A DNA stretch of 64,000 bases. Origin: a virus. Where the stretch lies: positions 1 through 64,000 of IMG/VR virus record IMGVR_UViG_3300027816_000087, one strand, 5' to 3'. Below are positions 6,274 through 22,258 of this stretch, piece after piece (within the stretch, counting starts at the first letter, position 1; each line of letters begins with the position of its first letter). Position numbers and translations under genes: made by a program. Under the pieces are notes generated by a model, which was not told the DNA's origin, searched no databases, and saw nothing but the letters and a program-made list of their open reading frames with translations.

Positions 6274-6729
6274 TTAGTTATTTGTAATAGATAATGTAGT
6301 TGGAATTTCACATGTACAAAGATTACTTAAACTACTTAAAAGAGTAAGACTTATTTCTTCAGGTCCTGAAACACTAAATGTTCCATAAAATGAAAAATTT
6401 TCATTTAAAACTTGAACTAGATCATTAATGTTATTAACTGTTACACTATTATCACTAATTATATTAAAATAATTAAATTCTCCTATTCCTCCTTCGCAGT
6501 TAGCTCCAGCTAATTGGAAAACTATTCCTGTTGTAGCAGGATAAACAAAACTATCTGTATTTCTTGTTAATGTACAAGTAGAAATGCTTGTAGTTTCACA
6601 ACATAAGTCTGCTGGAACCTCTTTCCATGTAGAAGGTCCATTGGGATGTGATCCTGCTGTGAGAATCAAGCTCCCAGGTACAATTTTTCCTTGTTTGCTG
6701 TACCTTACAAATGCGCGTTTTTTTGACAT
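6274..6729 (-). CDS. Modular tail-appendage protein with KKRAFVRY/WKEV anchor module
   Basis: A 151-aa protein. Residues 1-44 (MSKKRAFVRYSKQGKIVPGS, then LILTAGSHPNGPSTWKEVPADLCC) form a module shared with the proteins at 13211-13681 and 13800-14600; it ends in Cys43-Cys44. The remaining ~105 residues are unrelated to the other two and look like a beta-rich domain (TDSFVYPATTGIVFQLAG ... SLLSSL). The shared N-terminus with divergent C-termini fits a virion-attachment module joined to a variable surface domain. The start follows AAAAACA. Role inferred from modular structure and tail-operon context. Confidence 0.72.
   Translation of the reverse strand: MSKKRAFVRYSKQGKIVPGSLILTAGSHPNGPSTWKEVPADLCCETTSISTCTLTRNTDSFVYPATTGIVFQLAGANCEGGIGEFNYFNIISDNSVTVNNINDLVQVLNENFSFYGTFSVSGPEEISLTLLSSLSNLCTCEIPTTLSITNN
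6598..6729 (-). repeat. KKRAFVRY anchor module, copy 1
   Basis: Codes for the 44-residue N-terminal module ending in Cys-Cys. Related to copies 2 and 3 at protein level, with differences such as SKQGKIVPGSLILTAGSHPN. Confidence 0.8.
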
Positions 6730-6752: not shown

Positions 6753-7253
6753 TTATACACTCTTATTATTTTTTCTTTTTAAAGCAGCCTCTCTCATTTT
6801 TGCTTTTCTTTCTTCACTATGAGGACCAATCTTTTTACCAAGTTTAGCTTTTTTCATCTTTTCTTTAGTTTCTTCTGTGTGACCCTTTCTTTTTTTACCT
6901 CTATTAGGTTGAGGTCTTCCTTTCATAGCTAAACTTCTTTTTATATTAGATTCTTTAGTTATAATTATGTTTTGATTACCTTCCCCTCCATCTGTCATGT
7001 TTACTAAAGGTCCTAATTTTAAATCTTTTCTACCTATTAGTTTTATATAAAATTTTTCTTTCTCTACAGCCTCCTCCCAACTTAAATTCTTTTCAACAAT
7101 TATTATGTTATATCCGTACTTATTAACAATATTGTGCCAATGATTATTTCTATTTTGTTTACTATGTGGTCTCTTTTCATTACCTATACCAACATAAAAT
7201 ATTTCTTGTTTTACTGGATTATAGTGAAAATATATACAATTATTATTGCTCAC
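6753..7253 (-). CDS. GIY-YIG homing endonuclease with NUMOD3 repeats
   Basis: A 166-aa nuclease. The N-terminal GIY-YIG domain is degenerate (IYFHYNP ... FYVGIG), with a catalytic-type R in GNEKRPHSKQNR and a Glu in AVEKEKFYIKLIG. NMTDGGEG follows, as in T4 Seg/I-TevI-like proteins. The C-terminal third contains several NUMOD3-like Lys-rich DNA-binding units (SLAMKGRPQPNRGKKRKGHT, KLGKKIGPHSEERKAKMREA). It starts at a GTG overlapping the upstream gene's TGA; no in-frame ATG precedes the domain. It is a selfish element in the tail operon and is not required for tail structure. Confidence 0.85.
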   Translation of the reverse strand: MSNNNCIYFHYNPVKQEIFYVGIGNEKRPHSKQNRNNHWHNIVNKYGYNIIIVEKNLSWEEAVEKEKFYIKLIGRKDLKLGPLVNMTDGGEGNQNIIITKESNIKRSLAMKGRPQPNRGKKRKGHTEETKEKMKKAKLGKKIGPHSEERKAKMREAALKRKNNKSV

Positions 7254-7849
7254 GAGTACACTCTTATTTCTATTGGGGTGTTATTAGGTATCCCATCTTG
7301 TAAAGCTCCTTCAGTTTGAATAACTAATGTATTAATTGTTGATTCAGACCCACCAACAAATTGTATAGTTTGGCCTAACGAATCACCAGAATTTTGAACA
7401 GTTGGTGATATGGTTACAAAAGTTTTATTTTCATTAAACAAACCAATAGAATTAATATGATATACTCCAACATCATTATACGTAAACCAAATATTCCCAA
7501 TAGTATTCTCTAACACTGTTACTACTGGAGCTCCTTCTACATATGCTAAAGTACTACCTCCCCAATTATTGGGTGTAGTTCCTGTTGCTACAAATGATGT
7601 TCCTACATTATTATTTGGTGCTCCTACATTTGTAAAATCACCTCCAGAATTTTGTATAGTATATGTTACACCTACAATTAAATCTCCATCATTTCTTTCA
7701 GAACCAGTATCTCCACCACTCTGTGTTAATAAAGCTGTATACACTTTATATGAACCAGCTCCACTATCTAATAGAGCGTTCACCTTACAGCAAATAGATT
7801 TTATTTGCTTGTTAATGTTGTTTATCAATTCGTATAGTCCTAGTGCCAT
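7250..7849 (-). CDS. Tail/virion protein with INKQ-CC N-terminal module
   Basis: A 199-aa protein. It opens with a helical segment (LYELINNINKQIKSICC) ending in Cys20-Cys21 that recurs in the next two virion genes. The body is beta-rich and Gly/Thr/Asn-rich. Residues ~60-95 (GVTYTIQNSGG...FTNVGA... VGTSFVATGT) match the 'TYTI...DFT.(I/V)GA...VGT.F.ATG' repeat seen in many phage tail-fibre and virion proteins. It is probably a surface appendage. Its stop overlaps the homing-nuclease start. Confidence 0.72.
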   Translation of the reverse strand: MALGLYELINNINKQIKSICCKVNALLDSGAGSYKVYTALLTQSGGDTGSERNDGDLIVGVTYTIQNSGGDFTNVGAPNNNVGTSFVATGTTPNNWGGSTLAYVEGAPVVTVLENTIGNIWFTYNDVGVYHINSIGLFNENKTFVTISPTVQNSGDSLGQTIQFVGGSESTINTLVIQTEGALQDGIPNNTPIEIRVYS

Positions 7850-8090: not shown

Positions 8091-8921
8091 TTACCATCCT
8101 GGAGGTATTGTAAAGTTTTCTCTTATAGTTATACCAAATGCTGGTATTGTTGTAACATTATTTACCCAAGATGTACTTGGTGAATATAAACTTATTGGAG
8201 TATTAGAAAGAGTTGCTGTAGCAGGTCCTCCAAAATATGAGTTATAAGGAAAAGGTAATGTAATTGTTCCAGGTAAATTTATTTGATTATACGGTTGATA
8301 TAAATAGTTATATCCTTCAAGTTCATTTCCTGTTGCATCAAAATCAATTCCTATCAAAAATAAACCATCATGAGCTACTCCAGTGCCTAATCCATTAGGA
8401 GAACTCACTCTTTTTACAAATGGTACAGCATTTCTAGTTGATAAAAATGTACTATTAATAATTTTTACAGCATATTGATAATTTTCTTTTATACTTGATA
8501 AAAGACCTGCGTTTGTAATAGTATCAAATGTAGTGTACGTAGGACTTACTGATTGTAATGGTGATAACGATGTTTCTCTGAGAGATCTTGTTAATCTTGT
8601 AGTAGCCCCACCCGTTGCTTCATAGTTTACAATCACCATATTTACAAAATTAGGATTGCTAGCACCGATACTTGCAACTGTATTACCATTATACCAACCA
8701 TTTCTTTGTGCTACAACTCCTTGTCTTAAACATGAATCTAATGAAAGAAACCAACTAGCTCTAAAAAATTCACCTGGTTGTGTTGTTGTGCTAGTTGTTG
8801 TACTAGTAGAAGTTGTAGTGGTACTAGGAGGAGGAGGCGTAGGCTCACAACAAAGCTGTTTGTTAATATTTGTTAACAACTTAAGTGTCTCTTCTAATTT
8901 ATCGTATATTCCTTGTGTCAT
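8091..8921 (-). CDS. Tail/virion protein with INKQ-CC module and Thr/Ser linker
   Basis: A 276-aa protein in three parts. Residues 1-25 are a helical module (KLLTNINKQLCC) ending in Cys24-Cys25. Residues ~26-50 are a low-complexity Pro then Thr/Ser linker, typical of extended, possibly O-glycosylated stalks. Residues ~50-276 are a beta-rich globular domain with many aromatic and Asn residues (GYNYLYQPYNQINLPG). The shared N-terminus and flexible stalk fit a host-binding virion appendage. Receptor unknown. Confidence 0.7.
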   Translation of the reverse strand: MTQGIYDKLEETLKLLTNINKQLCCEPTPPPPSTTTTSTSTTTSTTTQPGEFFRASWFLSLDSCLRQGVVAQRNGWYNGNTVASIGASNPNFVNMVIVNYEATGGATTRLTRSLRETSLSPLQSVSPTYTTFDTITNAGLLSSIKENYQYAVKIINSTFLSTRNAVPFVKRVSSPNGLGTGVAHDGLFLIGIDFDATGNELEGYNYLYQPYNQINLPGTITLPFPYNSYFGGPATATLSNTPISLYSPSTSWVNNVTTIPAFGITIRENFTIPPGW

Positions 8922-8922
8922 A

Positions 8923-10242
8923 TTATCTACTTATTTCTTCCCAATCCATAGAAGCATAAGCTCCTTCACCACCAGATGTTGTGCTAACAGACATTTCTAC
9001 AACTAACTCATAAGGTGTTCCTGTTAAACTATTTCTTTCTAACTGATTGCTAAACAATGCTTCTTTTAGTATGCTTAAATATGGAGATCCTTGATTAGAG
9101 GAGTTTACAAACCCACTAGCTAACACTCTTCCTCCAGTTGCAGATGTAGCTGAAACATTATATTCTACAGAAGAATCGGCTGCTGCTGTTAACCATGATC
9201 CACCAGTAGTTGTAACACCACCATTCACCACTCTCCATTGGTAGTTTTTACCATTACCTAGTCCTAAAAGAGAAACAGCTGTTGGGATAACAATAGCATC
9301 AAGTCTTGTAGATTTAAGTCTTATAGACATAATTGGGTAATATGTACCAGCTACAGCAAAAGTTCTTGGTGCAGTGATGGTTGTACCAGCAGAAAGCTGT
9401 GCACCTCTAAGTTCATAACCTCCCTCAGATATCACTGTAGAACACACTTGTTTTAATGTAGAAGTATCAACTTCATTAGAAGCAAATGATGTATTAAATA
9501 TCTCATAACGCAGTGGTAATGAGGCTGTTGTAATGTATGTAGAAGCTAATACATTAGCATGTTGGAACGTGTGACAAAGAATAAATTGTCCATCAATAAC
9601 AAATCCCATTCTTACAGAACCCACTCCTAACCACTCAAGATCCATCCAAAGAATTTGAGCTTTAGTAAGATCAAGTGTAATTCCTGAAGGACCTGTTCCA
9701 TCTAGTTTATCTCCATTCCAACTCGCTTGAGGAATAGGTGTATTAATTAATGCACCAGTTACAATACTTCGTTTTACAAAAGAAACTGTACTTCCTGCTT
9801 GCTCTAAGTAGAAACCATTATTAGCCCCATAGTATCCCACTCTTTGTGTAAGCCAATTTTTTGCAGGATTCATTACAAAAGTACTAAGAGCTAAGAGTGA
9901 CTTACCTGGTTGATAAGCAAATACTTTGATAGTTTCTCTAATAACAGAAGATCCTAAAGAAGATCCCACTGAAAGGTCTACAAGACCTTGGTTAGCATTA
10001 AATACAGCTGTTCCACCAGTAGCAGTGGCTGTAGCCCACAAATCATTATCATCAAATCTATGACTAGAATCAAACATTGTAAGAGGAGAAGATGTTCTCA
10101 ATCTCCCAAAACTATCTTGTGCTGTAGAAGGAGCAAATGTAATCTCTGTAGGACCTGTTGGAACAACTGGATCATTATTTAAACAGCACACCTTATTGTT
10201 TATACTCTTTAATAAGTATAACATTTGTGAATCTAGATACAT
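8923..10242 (-). CDS. Large virion surface/tail protein
   Basis: A 439-aa protein. Residues 1-20 (LYLLKSINNKVCC) carry the helical module ending in Cys19-Cys20. After a short linker the body reads DSFGRLRTSSPLTMFDSSHR, then SVIRETIKVFAYQPGKS, TQRVGYYGANNGFYLEQ and an ILWMDLEWLGVGSVRMGFVI segment. That 'FGRLRxS.P...FD...RY...R.T..Y..YQPGKS....RIGYFD..NG.F.E' pattern is a widespread phage virion family known from several unrelated tailed phages. It is probably exposed on the tail or capsid. The start is an ATG preceded by AAC. Confidence 0.82.
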   Translation of the reverse strand: MYLDSQMLYLLKSINNKVCCLNNDPVVPTGPTEITFAPSTAQDSFGRLRTSSPLTMFDSSHRFDDNDLWATATATGGTAVFNANQGLVDLSVGSSLGSSVIRETIKVFAYQPGKSLLALSTFVMNPAKNWLTQRVGYYGANNGFYLEQAGSTVSFVKRSIVTGALINTPIPQASWNGDKLDGTGPSGITLDLTKAQILWMDLEWLGVGSVRMGFVIDGQFILCHTFQHANVLASTYITTASLPLRYEIFNTSFASNEVDTSTLKQVCSTVISEGGYELRGAQLSAGTTITAPRTFAVAGTYYPIMSIRLKSTRLDAIVIPTAVSLLGLGNGKNYQWRVVNGGVTTTGGSWLTAAADSSVEYNVSATSATGGRVLASGFVNSSNQGSPYLSILKEALFSNQLERNSLTGTPYELVVEMSVSTTSGGEGAYASMDWEEISR

Positions 10243-13210: not shown

Positions 13211-13681
13211 TTAAGCTTCTTGTAAAATTAAGTCAATCCTAAATGGAGAAGGACATAGTGTAAATTCAGTAGTTGTATTTAGTATAATATCTGATCCATT
13301 AAATACAAATGTTCCAATGTTATACCCTAAAATTGATGAAAAATCACTATTTAAGTAATTAATTACATCACTAATACTAGTAAACACAATATTAGGAAGA
13401 AATATAGTATAATTGTGACTAATATAAACTTCACTAGTAAATTCTCCACAGTTTATGCGAATACCAATTTCATTAATTGGTACATTTAAACTTAAATCCC
13501 CATAATTTAACTGTTTTATAACAGGTTGAAAACACTCACCACCATCACAACATTGATCCACTGTCACTTCTTTCCATAAAGAAGACTTATCAGGATATCC
13601 ACCATTAGTAGTGATGATAAGTGATCCAGGTACTATCTCTCCTGATTTAGTGTAGCGTACAAACGCGCGTTTTTTTGACAT
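13211..13681 (-). CDS. Modular tail-appendage protein with KKRAFVRY/WKEV anchor module
   Basis: A 156-aa protein. Residues 1-45 carry the shared module (MSKKRAFVRYTKSGEIVPGS, then LIITTNGGYPDKSSLWKEV...QCC) ending in Cys44-Cys45. The first 36 residues are identical to those of the gene at 13800-14600, yet 25 of 36 codons differ. The C-terminal ~110 residues form an unrelated, probably beta-rich domain (PINEIGIRINCGEFTSEVYI, IIVFT-like strands). Interpreted as an interchangeable virion appendage. Function of the variable domain unknown. Confidence 0.72.
   Translation of the reverse strand: MSKKRAFVRYTKSGEIVPGSLIITTNGGYPDKSSLWKEVTVDQCCDGGECFQPVIKQLNYGDLSLNVPINEIGIRINCGEFTSEVYISHNYTIFLPNIVFTSISDVINYLNSDFSSILGYNIGTFVFNGSDIILNTTTEFTLCPSPFRIDLILQEA
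13547..13681 (-). repeat. KKRAFVRY anchor module, copy 2
   Basis: Codes for a 45-residue module ending in Cys-Cys. Residues 1-36 are identical to copy 3, with 25 of 36 codons different. Confidence 0.85.
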
Positions 13682-13687
13682 GTCTAA

Positions 13688-13786
13688 TTATTTTTTAGGT
13701 CTAGGAAGTGTTGTAGGTCTTGGTCTAGTGGTTCCACCTTTAGGTTTTCCACATCCACATCCGTAAATTGCTGTTTCTTTTATCAT
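13688..13786 (-). CDS. Tiny Cys/Pro-rich peptide (32 aa)
   Basis: A complete ATG-to-TAA frame reading MIKETAIYGCGCGKPK then GGTTRPRPTTLPRPKK. It fills the 118-base gap between the two anchor-module genes. The C-G-C-G motif and the Pro/Arg/Thr tail give it a defined composition. A metal-binding or disulfide-forming virion peptide is imaginable. No family recognised; coding status moderate because of its length. Confidence 0.55.
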   Translation of the reverse strand: MIKETAIYGCGCGKPKGGTTRPRPTTLPRPKK

Positions 13787-13799
13787 GGTTTAAGGTTTT

Positions 13800-14600
13800 T
13801 TATATATCTTTTATTAAACGTACCGATTGTCCATAGAGTTTATCATTACCCTGATACTGTACTCTATGATATTGTGAATCAAAAATTATACAACCAACCC
13901 AACCTGGATTTGTTATATTTTCTTCCTGTGTCCAAAAATTTGCATAATTGTTACCACCTGCTACAATACCTGTAAAATTTGTTGAACTTAAAAATTGTCC
14001 ATCAGTAGATCTATACCCTGAAGGTAAAATTGAAAAACCATATTCATTAGTAGATGAAGAAATTCCAAAACCTATTGTCCACAAACCCGTATTATTATCA
14101 ATAAAACCTGATGTTTTTAATTTACTACCTGGTCCAAATAATAAATCGTTTGGACTACAATCTATGCAATTAAATAAATTTTGCCAGTCTTCTAAAACTG
14201 GAATTCGCCATCCTTCTGGTGCTAAACCTCTAGGGTCCATAATTGCATATCCATTATACAATTTACCATACACTCTTCCAAATGCAGTATCATTATTATA
14301 ATAACACCATGCAGGTGTAGTTAAAGAAGCCCATGCTGCATCATCTGTCACTTCAGGAATAGGATCACCATTTCTAAATGTTGTTCCATCAAAGTTTTCA
14401 AATGCCCAGTTCTCTGTACAAAAAGGTGTTATTGGAGGACAATTCCCACCATTATCACCATCACCACAACACTTATCAGCAATTACCTCTTGCCACAATG
14501 AACTTTTATCTGGGTAGCCTCCATTGGTAGTAATAATTAACGACCCTGGAACTATCTCACCAGATTTTGTATAACGTACAAATGCTCTTTTCTTGCTCAT
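13800..14600 (-). CDS. Anchor-module protein with C-terminal FISUMP domain
   Basis: A 266-aa protein. Residues 1-45 are the KKRAFVRY...WQEV...KCC module ending in Cys44-Cys45. Residues ~60-266 are a FISUMP/Fib_succ_major domain: GKLYNGYAIMDPRGLAPEGW, RIPVLEDWQNLF, LPSGYRSTDGQFL, YANFWTQEE, and the terminal GQSVRLIKD. It therefore joins the virion module of the small appendages to the adhesin fold of the 525-aa tail protein, strong evidence for domain swapping in this operon. Probably a glycan-binding receptor protein. Starts with ATG after AACTAACAAT. Confidence 0.82.
   Translation of the reverse strand: MSKKRAFVRYTKSGEIVPGSLIITTNGGYPDKSSLWQEVIADKCCGDGDNGGNCPPITPFCTENWAFENFDGTTFRNGDPIPEVTDDAAWASLTTPAWCYYNNDTAFGRVYGKLYNGYAIMDPRGLAPEGWRIPVLEDWQNLFNCIDCSPNDLLFGPGSKLKTSGFIDNNTGLWTIGFGISSSTNEYGFSILPSGYRSTDGQFLSSTNFTGIVAGGNNYANFWTQEENITNPGWVGCIIFDSQYHRVQYQGNDKLYGQSVRLIKDI
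14466..14600 (-). repeat. KKRAFVRY anchor module, copy 3
   Basis: Codes for the 45-residue module ending in Cys-Cys, joined to a FISUMP domain. Protein-identical to copy 2 over residues 1-36. Confidence 0.85.
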
Positions 14601-18177: not shown

Positions 18178-18861
18178 ATGGCAGTAGGAATTCTTATTAT
18201 TGCAGAATCAGGAGCTGGTAAATCTACTAGTATTGAAGCTCTAGATCCAAAAGAAACATTCATTATTAATGTAGCTAACAAACCTCTTCCTTTCAAAGGA
18301 TGGAGAAAAAAGTACACAACATGGAGTAAAGAAAACCCTGGTGGTAATCTTTATGACAAAGCTGCTCCTGAAAATATCGAAGCATGTCTTCGTTATATAA
18401 GCGAGAAGCGACCTGAGATTAAGAACATTGTTATTGATGATTTTCAATACATGTCTTCTTTTGAGTTCTTTGATAAAGTGGATGAGAAAGGTTACGAGAA
18501 GTTTACTAAGATAGGTGCACATTTAGCTAGAATAGCTAGGCTACCAAAAGATCTTAGAGATGATCTTATGATCTTTATTCTCACTCACGCAGAGGAAGCA
18601 ACAGACATTGAAGGTAAACGTAAGTTTAAAGCAAAGACTATTGGTAAAATGGTTGATGAAAAGCTTACATTAGAAGGTTTGTTTTCTATTGTTCTCTTTG
18701 GTAAAGTGAAGAAAAACAAAGAAGGTGTTATACGCTATGTTTTTGAAACACAAACCAATGGAGAAAATACATGCAAATCTCCTAGAGGAATGTTTGACAG
18801 TTTGGAAATTGAAAACAATTTGCAAATGGTGCGTCAAGCTATTTTGGATTACGAAAATTAA
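18178..18861 (+). CDS. Sak4-like single-strand annealing/recombination ATPase
   Basis: A 227-aa P-loop ATPase. Walker A is G12-A-G-K15-S-T17 at the very N-terminus (LIIAESGAGKST), Walker B is IVIDDFQ with D87-D88, and sensor-like FILTHAEEATD follows. Size, extreme N-terminal P-loop and adjacency to an SSB gene are typical of phage Sak4 (RecA-core, AAA_24) recombinases, which need SSB for activity (known of the family). It probably supports recombination-dependent replication with the PD-(D/E)XK nuclease at 21200. Confidence 0.82.
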   Translation: MAVGILIIAESGAGKSTSIEALDPKETFIINVANKPLPFKGWRKKYTTWSKENPGGNLYDKAAPENIEACLRYISEKRPEIKNIVIDDFQYMSSFEFFDKVDEKGYEKFTKIGAHLARIARLPKDLRDDLMIFILTHAEEATDIEGKRKFKAKTIGKMVDEKLTLEGLFSIVLFGKVKKNKEGVIRYVFETQTNGENTCKSPRGMFDSLEIENNLQMVRQAILDYEN

Positions 18862-20956: not shown

Positions 20957-21209
20957 TAACGACAGAGATCCCAATGAAGAGATGTGGGAAAAACAGCAAT
21001 TTGACATAGAAGTAGAAAATGAAAGATTAAATAAACACAAAGATATGATGAAACAAGTTGTTGATCTTAATAACGAGCTAATTGATATTCAAGTGGAAAA
21101 GTTTAAAATACTATGTGATTTTCTTGAGTATGAAGAAGCTCTTACAAAAGATAAAGACACTGCGTCTAGAATACAAACACTTTTAAAAGGAATGAATGTA
21201 TGGAAATAG
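20943..21209 (+). CDS. Small acidic helical protein
   Basis: An 88-aa highly charged protein (MAIYNNDRDPNEEMWEKQQF...) with a probable coiled coil in its centre (HKDMMKQVVDLNNELIDIQV). It overlaps the HNH gene by 14 bases and the nuclease gene by 10. Stops with TAG. No family recognised; it may be a partner of the following nuclease. Confidence 0.65.
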   Translation: MAIYNNDRDPNEEMWEKQQFDIEVENERLNKHKDMMKQVVDLNNELIDIQVEKFKILCDFLEYEEALTKDKDTASRIQTLLKGMNVWK

Positions 21210-22258
21210 ATGATTTCTTTGAAGATAAAATGCTAACAGAATTAGTAACAGAATCTGTTAAGATGTTAGAAGATGAGTTTTATAGTAAACGATTTGAGTT
21301 TTCTTACAGTAGTCTTAATAAATTATTATGGAACCCTGTAGTGTTTCATCAGCTTTATGTTCTTAAAATGAAAGAAGAAAAAACTGATGCTCACTTAGTG
21401 CAGGGTAAGGTGATACATTGTCTTTTATTAGAAGAGAATAAGTTTAATGATCAATTTATTATTAGCCCTTCTAGTTTACCAACAGGTAATCTTAGAAGTG
21501 TAATAGATAGAGTGTATAGTCATTATAAAGAGTTATCATCTAATGGAGATCAGAGAACTAGACTAGAAGAGTTTTCTGAAGCTATTCTTGATATTCTAAG
21601 AGATATAAACTATCATCAGAGTTTAAAAACAGACGAGCAAAGATTAGATAAGGTGCTCACTGGAGAAGCTATATCATATTGGGATTTTCTTATGACAAGA
21701 AACGGTAAAACTCTTGTAGATCAGGACACTTATAATTTCTGTAAAGGAGCTGTAGATCTTATTAAATCAGATCCTAATGTATGTGAGCTTATAGGAGCTA
21801 ATGTAAATGACTTTAGTAATAAAGATGTTTACAACGAGCTTCCCTTAACAGCAAACATAAGTGGAAAACCTTTTGGTCTTAAAGGAATTGTAGATAATAT
21901 AGTTGTTGATCATAATAAAAAAATTATTTTTATCAACGATTTAAAGACTACAAGTAAAGAGTTAAAAGATTTTTCAGAGTCTGTTGAATATTATAACTAT
22001 TGGATGCAAGCTGTGATATACACAACTCTTGTTTCAACCAAGTTTTTTCATTATATTCATAGTGAAGGGTATTCTGTACAATTTAGATTTCTTGTAATCG
22101 ATAAAATGTTCAATGTCTATCCCTTCTTGGTAAGTGAAAAAACTCTAACTGATTGGTTAACAAGGTTTTTAACATGCTTGGAAAAAGCCGAATGGCATTA
22201 TATAAACAAAAGATACGATCTACCATACGAATTCGCATTAGGAAAGGTCGTTCTGTAA
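21200..22258 (+). CDS. PD-(D/E)XK nuclease (RecB/YqaJ-like exonuclease)
   Basis: A 352-aa nuclease of the RecB-like family. The N-terminal helix-strand element is FSYSSLNKLLWNPVVF and GKVIHCLLLEEN. The catalytic core is D232 in GLKGIVDNIVV and D247-L-K249 in IFINDLKTTS, followed by the YNYWMQAVIYTTL helix that corresponds to the Q-x-x-x-Y motif. This arrangement is typical of phage 5'-3' exonucleases acting with an annealase. With the Sak4-like ATPase and SSB it completes a recombination set. Confidence 0.87.
   Translation: MEIDDFFEDKMLTELVTESVKMLEDEFYSKRFEFSYSSLNKLLWNPVVFHQLYVLKMKEEKTDAHLVQGKVIHCLLLEENKFNDQFIISPSSLPTGNLRSVIDRVYSHYKELSSNGDQRTRLEEFSEAILDILRDINYHQSLKTDEQRLDKVLTGEAISYWDFLMTRNGKTLVDQDTYNFCKGAVDLIKSDPNVCELIGANVNDFSNKDVYNELPLTANISGKPFGLKGIVDNIVVDHNKKIIFINDLKTTSKELKDFSESVEYYNYWMQAVIYTTLVSTKFFHYIHSEGYSVQFRFLVIDKMFNVYPFLVSEKTLTDWLTRFLTCLEKAEWHYINKRYDLPYEFALGKVVL

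What the first reader, a model, noticed from the sequence alone, without database searches (positions are those of the whole stretch)
13547..14600. Identical 36-residue peptide written with different codons in two neighbouring genes
The genes at 13211-13681 and 13800-14600 have the same first 36 amino acids, but 25 of 36 codons differ, including Ser, Arg and Leu box switches (TCA/AGC, CGC/AGA, CTT/TTA). Conservation is strictly at the protein level. Either the duplication is old and the peptide is under extreme constraint, or codon divergence is favoured because it prevents recombination between neighbouring copies that would delete the gene between them.
Basis: seen in the sequence. Interest (0 to 1): 0.7.

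Follow-up and report, generated by a model that had tools for sequence, protein, structure and literature searches.

The report
Swappable N-terminal docking module in phages
Two neighbouring genes of a crAss-like freshwater phage begin with the same 36 amino acids because both carry a 43-residue "plug" domain, shared by dozens of related phages, that is moved between unrelated proteins as a tiny DNA cassette and probably fastens them to the virus particle.

Summary
But it is not a two-gene curiosity. The peptide is the start of a ~43-residue module (KKRAFVRYxKxGKIVPGSLI...W.EV..DLCC). A third copy lies at 6598-6729. My working set holds 91 copies in 38 phage records, 1-6 per record, nearly always N-terminal, sometimes two per protein, fused to unrelated C-termini: FISUMP, BspA LRR, LCIB-type carbonic anhydrase fold and others. 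AlphaFold gives a confident mini-domain (pLDDT 92). Between phages, a cassette of start region plus 43 codons is ~88% identical in DNA while flanks and cargo are unrelated: it is shuffled. Inside one genome, copies are never that DNA-similar (longest exact run 20 nt). The window pair is an old paralogous split with saturated synonymous sites; its subtype is conserved in other phages. Codon divergence beyond saturation is suggestive at most. By analogy with crAss001 fibre N-termini and the 29-residue KP32 peptide, I infer a virion-docking domain carrying exchangeable surface proteins. No Pfam, PHROG or PDB family matches it. New variant of a known kind; function unproven.

The parts
13547..13681 (-). 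Module copy 1 (45 residues incl. Met), N-terminus of gene 13211-13681
   Evidence: HMM hits in 38 records; AlphaFold pLDDT 92
14466..14600 (-). Module copy 2, N-terminus of gene 13800-14600; residues 1-36 identical to copy 1
6598..6729 (-). Module copy 3 (SKQGK subtype), N-terminus of gene 6274-6729
   Evidence: 68% identity, E 3e-16; the SKQGK subtype is common in relatives
13211..13546 (-). Cargo of copy 1: small predicted beta/alpha domain (residues 68-155), no family match
   Evidence: pLDDT about 75
13800..14465 (-). Cargo of copy 2: Fib_succ_major (FISUMP) domain
   Evidence: PF09603 E 3.8e-31
6274..6597 (-). Cargo of copy 3: member of the commonest cargo cluster in the family
   Evidence: cargo cluster 0 (15 genes in 12 genomes)
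13688..13786 (-). Small gene (32 aa, CGCGKPK...RPKK) lying between the two copies
   Evidence: similar Lys/Pro-rich gene ends precede module genes in L011 and L034 (by eye)
18178..18861 (+). Sak4-like single-strand annealing recombinase of the same phage (possible agent of cassette exchange; inferred)
   Evidence: phrog_2872 E 5e-64
21200..22258 (+). Exonuclease VIII-like PD-(D/E)XK nuclease (same role; inferred)
   Evidence: phrog_412 E 3e-25

Best explanation
The shared peptide is a compact 43-residue N-terminal domain that these crAss-like phages use as a common plug. Shown: it is an independent family, nearly always N-terminal, sometimes in tandem, fused to many unrelated C-terminal domains. 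It is shared between genes of different phages as a DNA unit running from about 20 bases before the start codon to the CC codons. The two window copies are old members of one subtype whose synonymous sites are saturated. Inferred: the plug docks each protein on the virion (head-fibre or tail-fibre socket, perhaps locked by the CC pair), so its sequence is fixed by the socket while the exposed C-terminal part is replaced by recombination to change what the particle binds.
For: Family of 91 copies in 76 ORFs and 38 records, 14 tandem pairs. About 14 cargo clusters plus singletons, including FISUMP, BspA LRR_5, Lcl_C and LCIB_C_CA. In 134 between-phage pairs with unrelated cargo the module is 88% identical in DNA, about 60% over -20 to 0, and at background (~0.30) outside. 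AlphaFold pLDDT 92 for the isolated module. Same strand as the neighbouring CHAP/tail-lysozyme-like gene and virion genes. The phage is related to csAssE and phi17:2 by its tail protein. In PhicrAss001 head fibres gp21 (1-38) and gp29 (1-58) and tail fibre gp22 (1-26) attach by short N-termini, and most crassviruses lack gp21/gp29 homologues (PMC10172136). KP32 second RBPs share only their first 29 residues (PMC6872550). A sister N-terminal module (INKQxCC) in the same phages is joined to a body 60% identical to a cyanophage virion protein.
Against: No proteomics or structure shows any of these proteins in a virion; no isolate carries the family. Adapters of one genome are not more alike than those of different genomes in the whole set (0.573 vs 0.586 permuted), so co-variation with one socket is not demonstrated. 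Tandem copies and an LCIB carbonic-anhydrase-like cargo are odd for simple fibre docking. The fold gives no significant PDB match.
Confidence: 0.62

Rival explanations
1. One reading: DNA-similar copies inside one genome are removed or disfavoured because the phage's own annealing recombinase would recombine them and delete the genes between; only codon-diverged copies persist. (Not exclusive with the docking reading.)
For: Same-subtype pairs within a genome: 8 pairs at aa >=0.75, mean z about 0, one with a 20-nt exact run, none >=25; between genomes without flank homology: mean z 2.2, 157 of 257 with runs >=20 (Fisher P 0.008). Label permutation 0/500 at aa >=0.65. The phage encodes Sak4, an SSB-like protein and an exonuclease. 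Window pair 11 vs 19.4 same codons.
Against: Pairs are not independent. Within-genome z is about 0, i.e. saturated, not below. The pattern also follows if each genome holds one copy per slot and exchange is allelic. The window excess is weak with family codon usage (z -1.9).
Confidence: 0.3
2. Plain ancient tandem duplication of one gene in this lineage with later C-terminal divergence; no module mobility involved for this pair.
For: Adjacent, same orientation; copies 1 and 2 belong to one subtype and are near neighbours in a tree.
Against: Cargo domains are unrelated and copy 2 shares its FISUMP cargo cluster with genes carrying other adapter subtypes (L011, L034, L036, L041). Copy 1 is nearer to L010/L011 copies than to copy 2 (nt 0.85/0.84 vs 0.70).
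Confidence: 0.15
3. The module is not a virion dock but a targeting or assembly tag acting inside the infected cell, or a host-surface binder.
For: One recurrent cargo has an LCIB beta-carbonic-anhydrase fold, an enzyme family; no virion data.
Against: Other cargos (FISUMP, LRR_5, Lcl_C) are families typical of cell-surface or receptor-binding proteins (established knowledge); the LCIB copies keep Cys/His/Cys but have Ala where the compared LCIB proteins have Arg, so catalysis is doubtful; short N-terminal docks are a known crassvirus mode (PMC10172136).
Confidence: 0.2
4. The DNA itself is functional in the shared region (regulatory or overlapping element) and this causes the conservation.
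For: DNA is conserved between phages for one subtype.
Against: In the window the same residues are written with 25 of 36 different codons.
Confidence: 0.02

Closest known systems
PhicrAss001 head-fibre proteins gp21/gp29 and tail-fibre gp22 N-termini
   Same: Short N-terminal segments (26-58 residues) plug fibre proteins into capsid hexons or tail hubs of a crassvirus (PMC10172136)
   Different: No sequence match of the module to any PDB chain. Here many different proteins per genome share one plug, some with two plugs, ending in a CC pair
Conserved N-terminal attachment peptides of podovirus RBPs (KP32viruses 29 aa; K1-5 hepta-/undecapeptides; T7/K1F anchor)
   Same: Conserved N-terminus, exchangeable C-terminal receptor-binding part (PMC6872550)
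   Different: Unrelated phage group; here a separately folding 43-residue mini-domain in several genes per genome, with DNA cassette boundaries visible
Fibrobacter succinogenes major domain (FISUMP) proteins, reported with DGRs (PMC8143477, PMC4159848; found by search, not read)
   Same: Copy 2 cargo is this domain
   Different: No second DNA copy of the FISUMP region, as a DGR template repeat would be, found in the 89-kb record

Membership tests
Phage N-terminal virion-docking module (functional class) | Conserved short N-terminus joined to variable C-termini | tested here: met
Phage N-terminal virion-docking module (functional class) | Present in the virion and bound to a structural protein | not testable with these tools
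   Needs virion proteomics or cryo-EM
PhicrAss001 gp21/gp29 head-fibre proteins | Sequence homology of the N-terminal segment | tested here: not met
   Profile search against all PDB chains: five weak matches, best E 0.064 to an unrelated PCNA chain, none a phage protein
PhicrAss001 gp21/gp29 head-fibre proteins | Fold similarity | tested here: inconclusive
   Foldseek best E 1.1; VIA-align one row at Z 2.1, a pilin
Pfam / PHROG known families | Match of the module region to a curated model | tested here: not met
   No hit over residues 1-45 in the three window proteins
DGR variable protein | Template repeat near-identical to a region of the gene in the same genome | tested here: not met
   Own-genome DNA search with 13211-14600 returned only module copy 3; the 89-kb record may be incomplete
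Crassvirales-like phage | Homologue of crassvirus tail/structural proteins | tested here: met
   L042:463-5010 matches csAssE, phi17:2, phi4:1 over 87-89% at 26-27% identity, and Leptolyngbya phage Lbo-JY46 over 93%

The most novel reading that the evidence does not exclude
A DNA-level rule governs a protein plug: phages exchange the same ~145-bp plug cassette freely between genomes to swap surface proteins, but within one genome copies that bind the same socket must be written in different codons, because the phage's own Sak4 recombinase would otherwise delete the genes between them. Codon divergence then works as an insulation system for a multi-slot display.
Probability: 0.2. Interest if true: 0.8.

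Novelty: new variant of a known kind. Interest (0 to 1): 0.52.

Why it matters
It describes an unclassified domain, probably a docking domain, in crAss-like phages known mainly from metagenomes, and gives a handle on their unknown surface proteins. Anything fused behind the plug is a candidate displayed protein, including a carbonic-anhydrase-fold protein that no isolate phage in the collection carries. The sharp cassette boundaries give a natural case of domain shuffling seen at DNA level, and the lack of DNA-similar copies inside a genome makes the question of how repeats survive in recombining phages testable.

Tried and rejected
Isolate phages: no credible match to the module by tblastn. 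Genome contigs (bacterial/archaeal genomes): none confirmed. PDB sequence and fold searches: nothing significant. BFVD: one weak match, a Virus NIOZ-UU157 protein, 38% identity over 42 columns, E 0.15, probability 1.0, probably a relative but not pursued. Gene-conversion or mosaic tract between copies 1 and 2 using L010 and L011 as references: not significant (P 0.054 and 0.21). Co-variation of modules within a genome: not seen in the whole set; only L086/L087 show a lineage-specific version across different cargos. DGR: no template repeat. DNA-level function rejected because the window copies differ in 25 codons.

Full report
OBSERVATION. The two minus-strand genes 13211-13681 (156 aa) and 13800-14600 (266 aa) begin with the same 36 residues. 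Identity is 41/45 up to a closing Cys-Cys; after that the proteins are unrelated. NG86 gives pS 0.95 over the 36 codons with no amino-acid change, so synonymous sites are saturated. A third copy, 68% identical, starts gene 6274-6729.

WHAT IT IS. Profile searches of IMG/VR found about 45 contigs with the peptide. Each of 34 records searched whole holds 1 to 6 copies. In the working set there are 91 copies in 76 ORFs of 38 records; 14 tandem pairs put two modules in one protein. The consensus is KKRAFVRYxKxGKIVPGSLIxTxGSYPxxxxxWxEVxxDLCC. AlphaFold with 80 family members gives pLDDT 92 for the isolated 45 residues, a three-stranded mini-domain. It matches no Pfam or PHROG model and no PDB chain significantly by sequence or fold. 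The best viral model match is a protein of Virus NIOZ-UU157 (38% over 42 columns, E 0.15).

CARGO. The C-terminal parts fall into about 14 clusters plus singletons: Fib_succ_major (window 13800-14600, L036, L041), BspA-type LRR (L015), Lcl_C (L020), an LCIB-type beta-carbonic-anhydrase domain in nine contigs, a small beta domain, Thr-rich linkers and unnamed domains. The phage is crAss-like: its large tail protein aligns over 87-93% with csAssE, Cellulophaga phi17:2 and Leptolyngbya phage Lbo-JY46.

SHUFFLING. I compared the DNA around modules. In 134 between-phage pairs with unrelated cargo and module identity >=0.85 (31 genomes), identity is 0.88 inside the module, about 0.6 from -20 to the start, and about 0.30 (background) farther upstream and from about 9 bases after the CC codons. 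Local alignments run typically from -15/-20 to +126 and stop. Single pairs reach 97-98% identity with exact runs of 53-65 nt although the cargo is unrelated. In a few pairs the upstream gene is also shared and only the cargo is new (L068/L069, L018/L020). So the unit that moves is the translation start plus 43 codons. The phage has a Sak4-like annealing protein, an SSB-like protein and an exonuclease, which could do this; that link is inferred.

THE WINDOW PAIR. Copy 1 is closer in DNA to copies in L010 and L011 (0.85, 0.84) than to copy 2 (0.70), and a small tree puts copy 2 outside the copy 1-L010-L011 group (support about 0.9, but only 129 bases). The 36-residue sequence is also kept exactly in L010 and with one change in L011. 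So exact identity is best read as subtype constraint on an old split, not recent duplication. The same two copies, with the same codons but for one in L007, occur in the near-identical records L006-L009. No conversion tract was significant.

IS CODON DIVERGENCE FAVOURED? Against random codon choice with the phage's usage, the pair shares too few codons (11 vs 19.4, P 0.002). With the family's own usage it is 12 vs 17.6 (z -1.9), and between-genome pairs reach z of -3 to -4. I therefore do not accept active codon divergence from this pair. Across the family there is a contrast: at amino-acid identity >=0.75, eight within-genome pairs have mean z near 0 and one exact run of 20 nt, while 257 between-genome pairs without flank homology have mean z 2.2 and 157 runs >=20 nt (Fisher P 0.008); label permutation at >=0.65 gave 0 of 500. 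Pairs share sequences, so these P values are optimistic, and one-copy-per-slot replacement explains the same data. Loss of DNA-similar neighbours by recombination remains possible.

FUNCTION. Shown: modular N-terminus, same strand as virion genes, several surface-type cargos. Inferred: virion docking. The precedent is direct in kind: PhicrAss001 gp21, gp29 and gp22 attach by residues 1-38, 1-58 and 1-26, most crassviruses lack gp21/gp29 homologues, and disulfides stabilise its tail barrel and fibre hubs (PMC10172136). KP32 RBPs use a 29-residue conserved N-terminus (PMC6872550). A second N-terminal module with a CC pair, INKQxCC, occurs in the same phages. In 8923-10242 it sits on a body 60% identical to cyanophage S-RIM12 and HMO-2011 structural proteins, whose own N-termini differ. 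That is what phage-specific docks on exchanged bodies should look like. The CC pair as an interchain lock is a guess.

VERDICT. A real, unclassified family that probably works like known fibre-docking N-termini; membership in any named family is not met by sequence.

Noticed in passing
L015:13117-14091; also L026, L031, L032, L033, L035, L039, L040, L041: LCIB_C_CA (beta-carbonic-anhydrase) domain fused behind the module in nine phage contigs. The Cys/His/Cys columns that I take for zinc ligands are kept in 9/9, but the Arg of the compared LCIB proteins' CSDEVxR motif is Ala in 9/9; no isolate phage in the collection has it.
   Followed up: partly
window 7250-7849, 8091-8921, 8923-10242; L010, L011, L019, L034: A second N-terminal module, [YL]xLIxxINKQIKxxCC, on unrelated bodies (one collagen-like). 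Nine of 381 ORFs, all within the first 30 or so residues.
   Followed up: partly
window 8923-10242: Body 60% identical to virion proteins of Synechococcus cyanophages and HMO-2011 with the N-terminus replaced; transfer between unrelated phages.
   Followed up: partly
L042:9717-10997, L043:980-2011, L043:4806-5138: A third recurring segment of the form SxCVxYxGxxxxCxGVxxGDTxxxVIxKL near the start of several proteins; seen by eye only.
   Followed up: no
L043:2570-4774: Three tandem Cys-rich paralogues (CxxCCPDC, GIxxxSC repeats) of unknown function, seen by eye.
   Followed up: no
window 6753-7253: Possible GIY-YIG-like homing endonuclease (by eye) with a weak NUMOD3 match directly upstream of module copy 3; not found upstream of modules in other phages except near-identical records.
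   Followed up: partly
L086, L087: A divergent version of the module (YANNKxVPGS...AP.VGVWKEV.YDLCC) shared by genes with different cargos homologous to those of the main clade; suggests lineage-specific sockets.
   Followed up: partly
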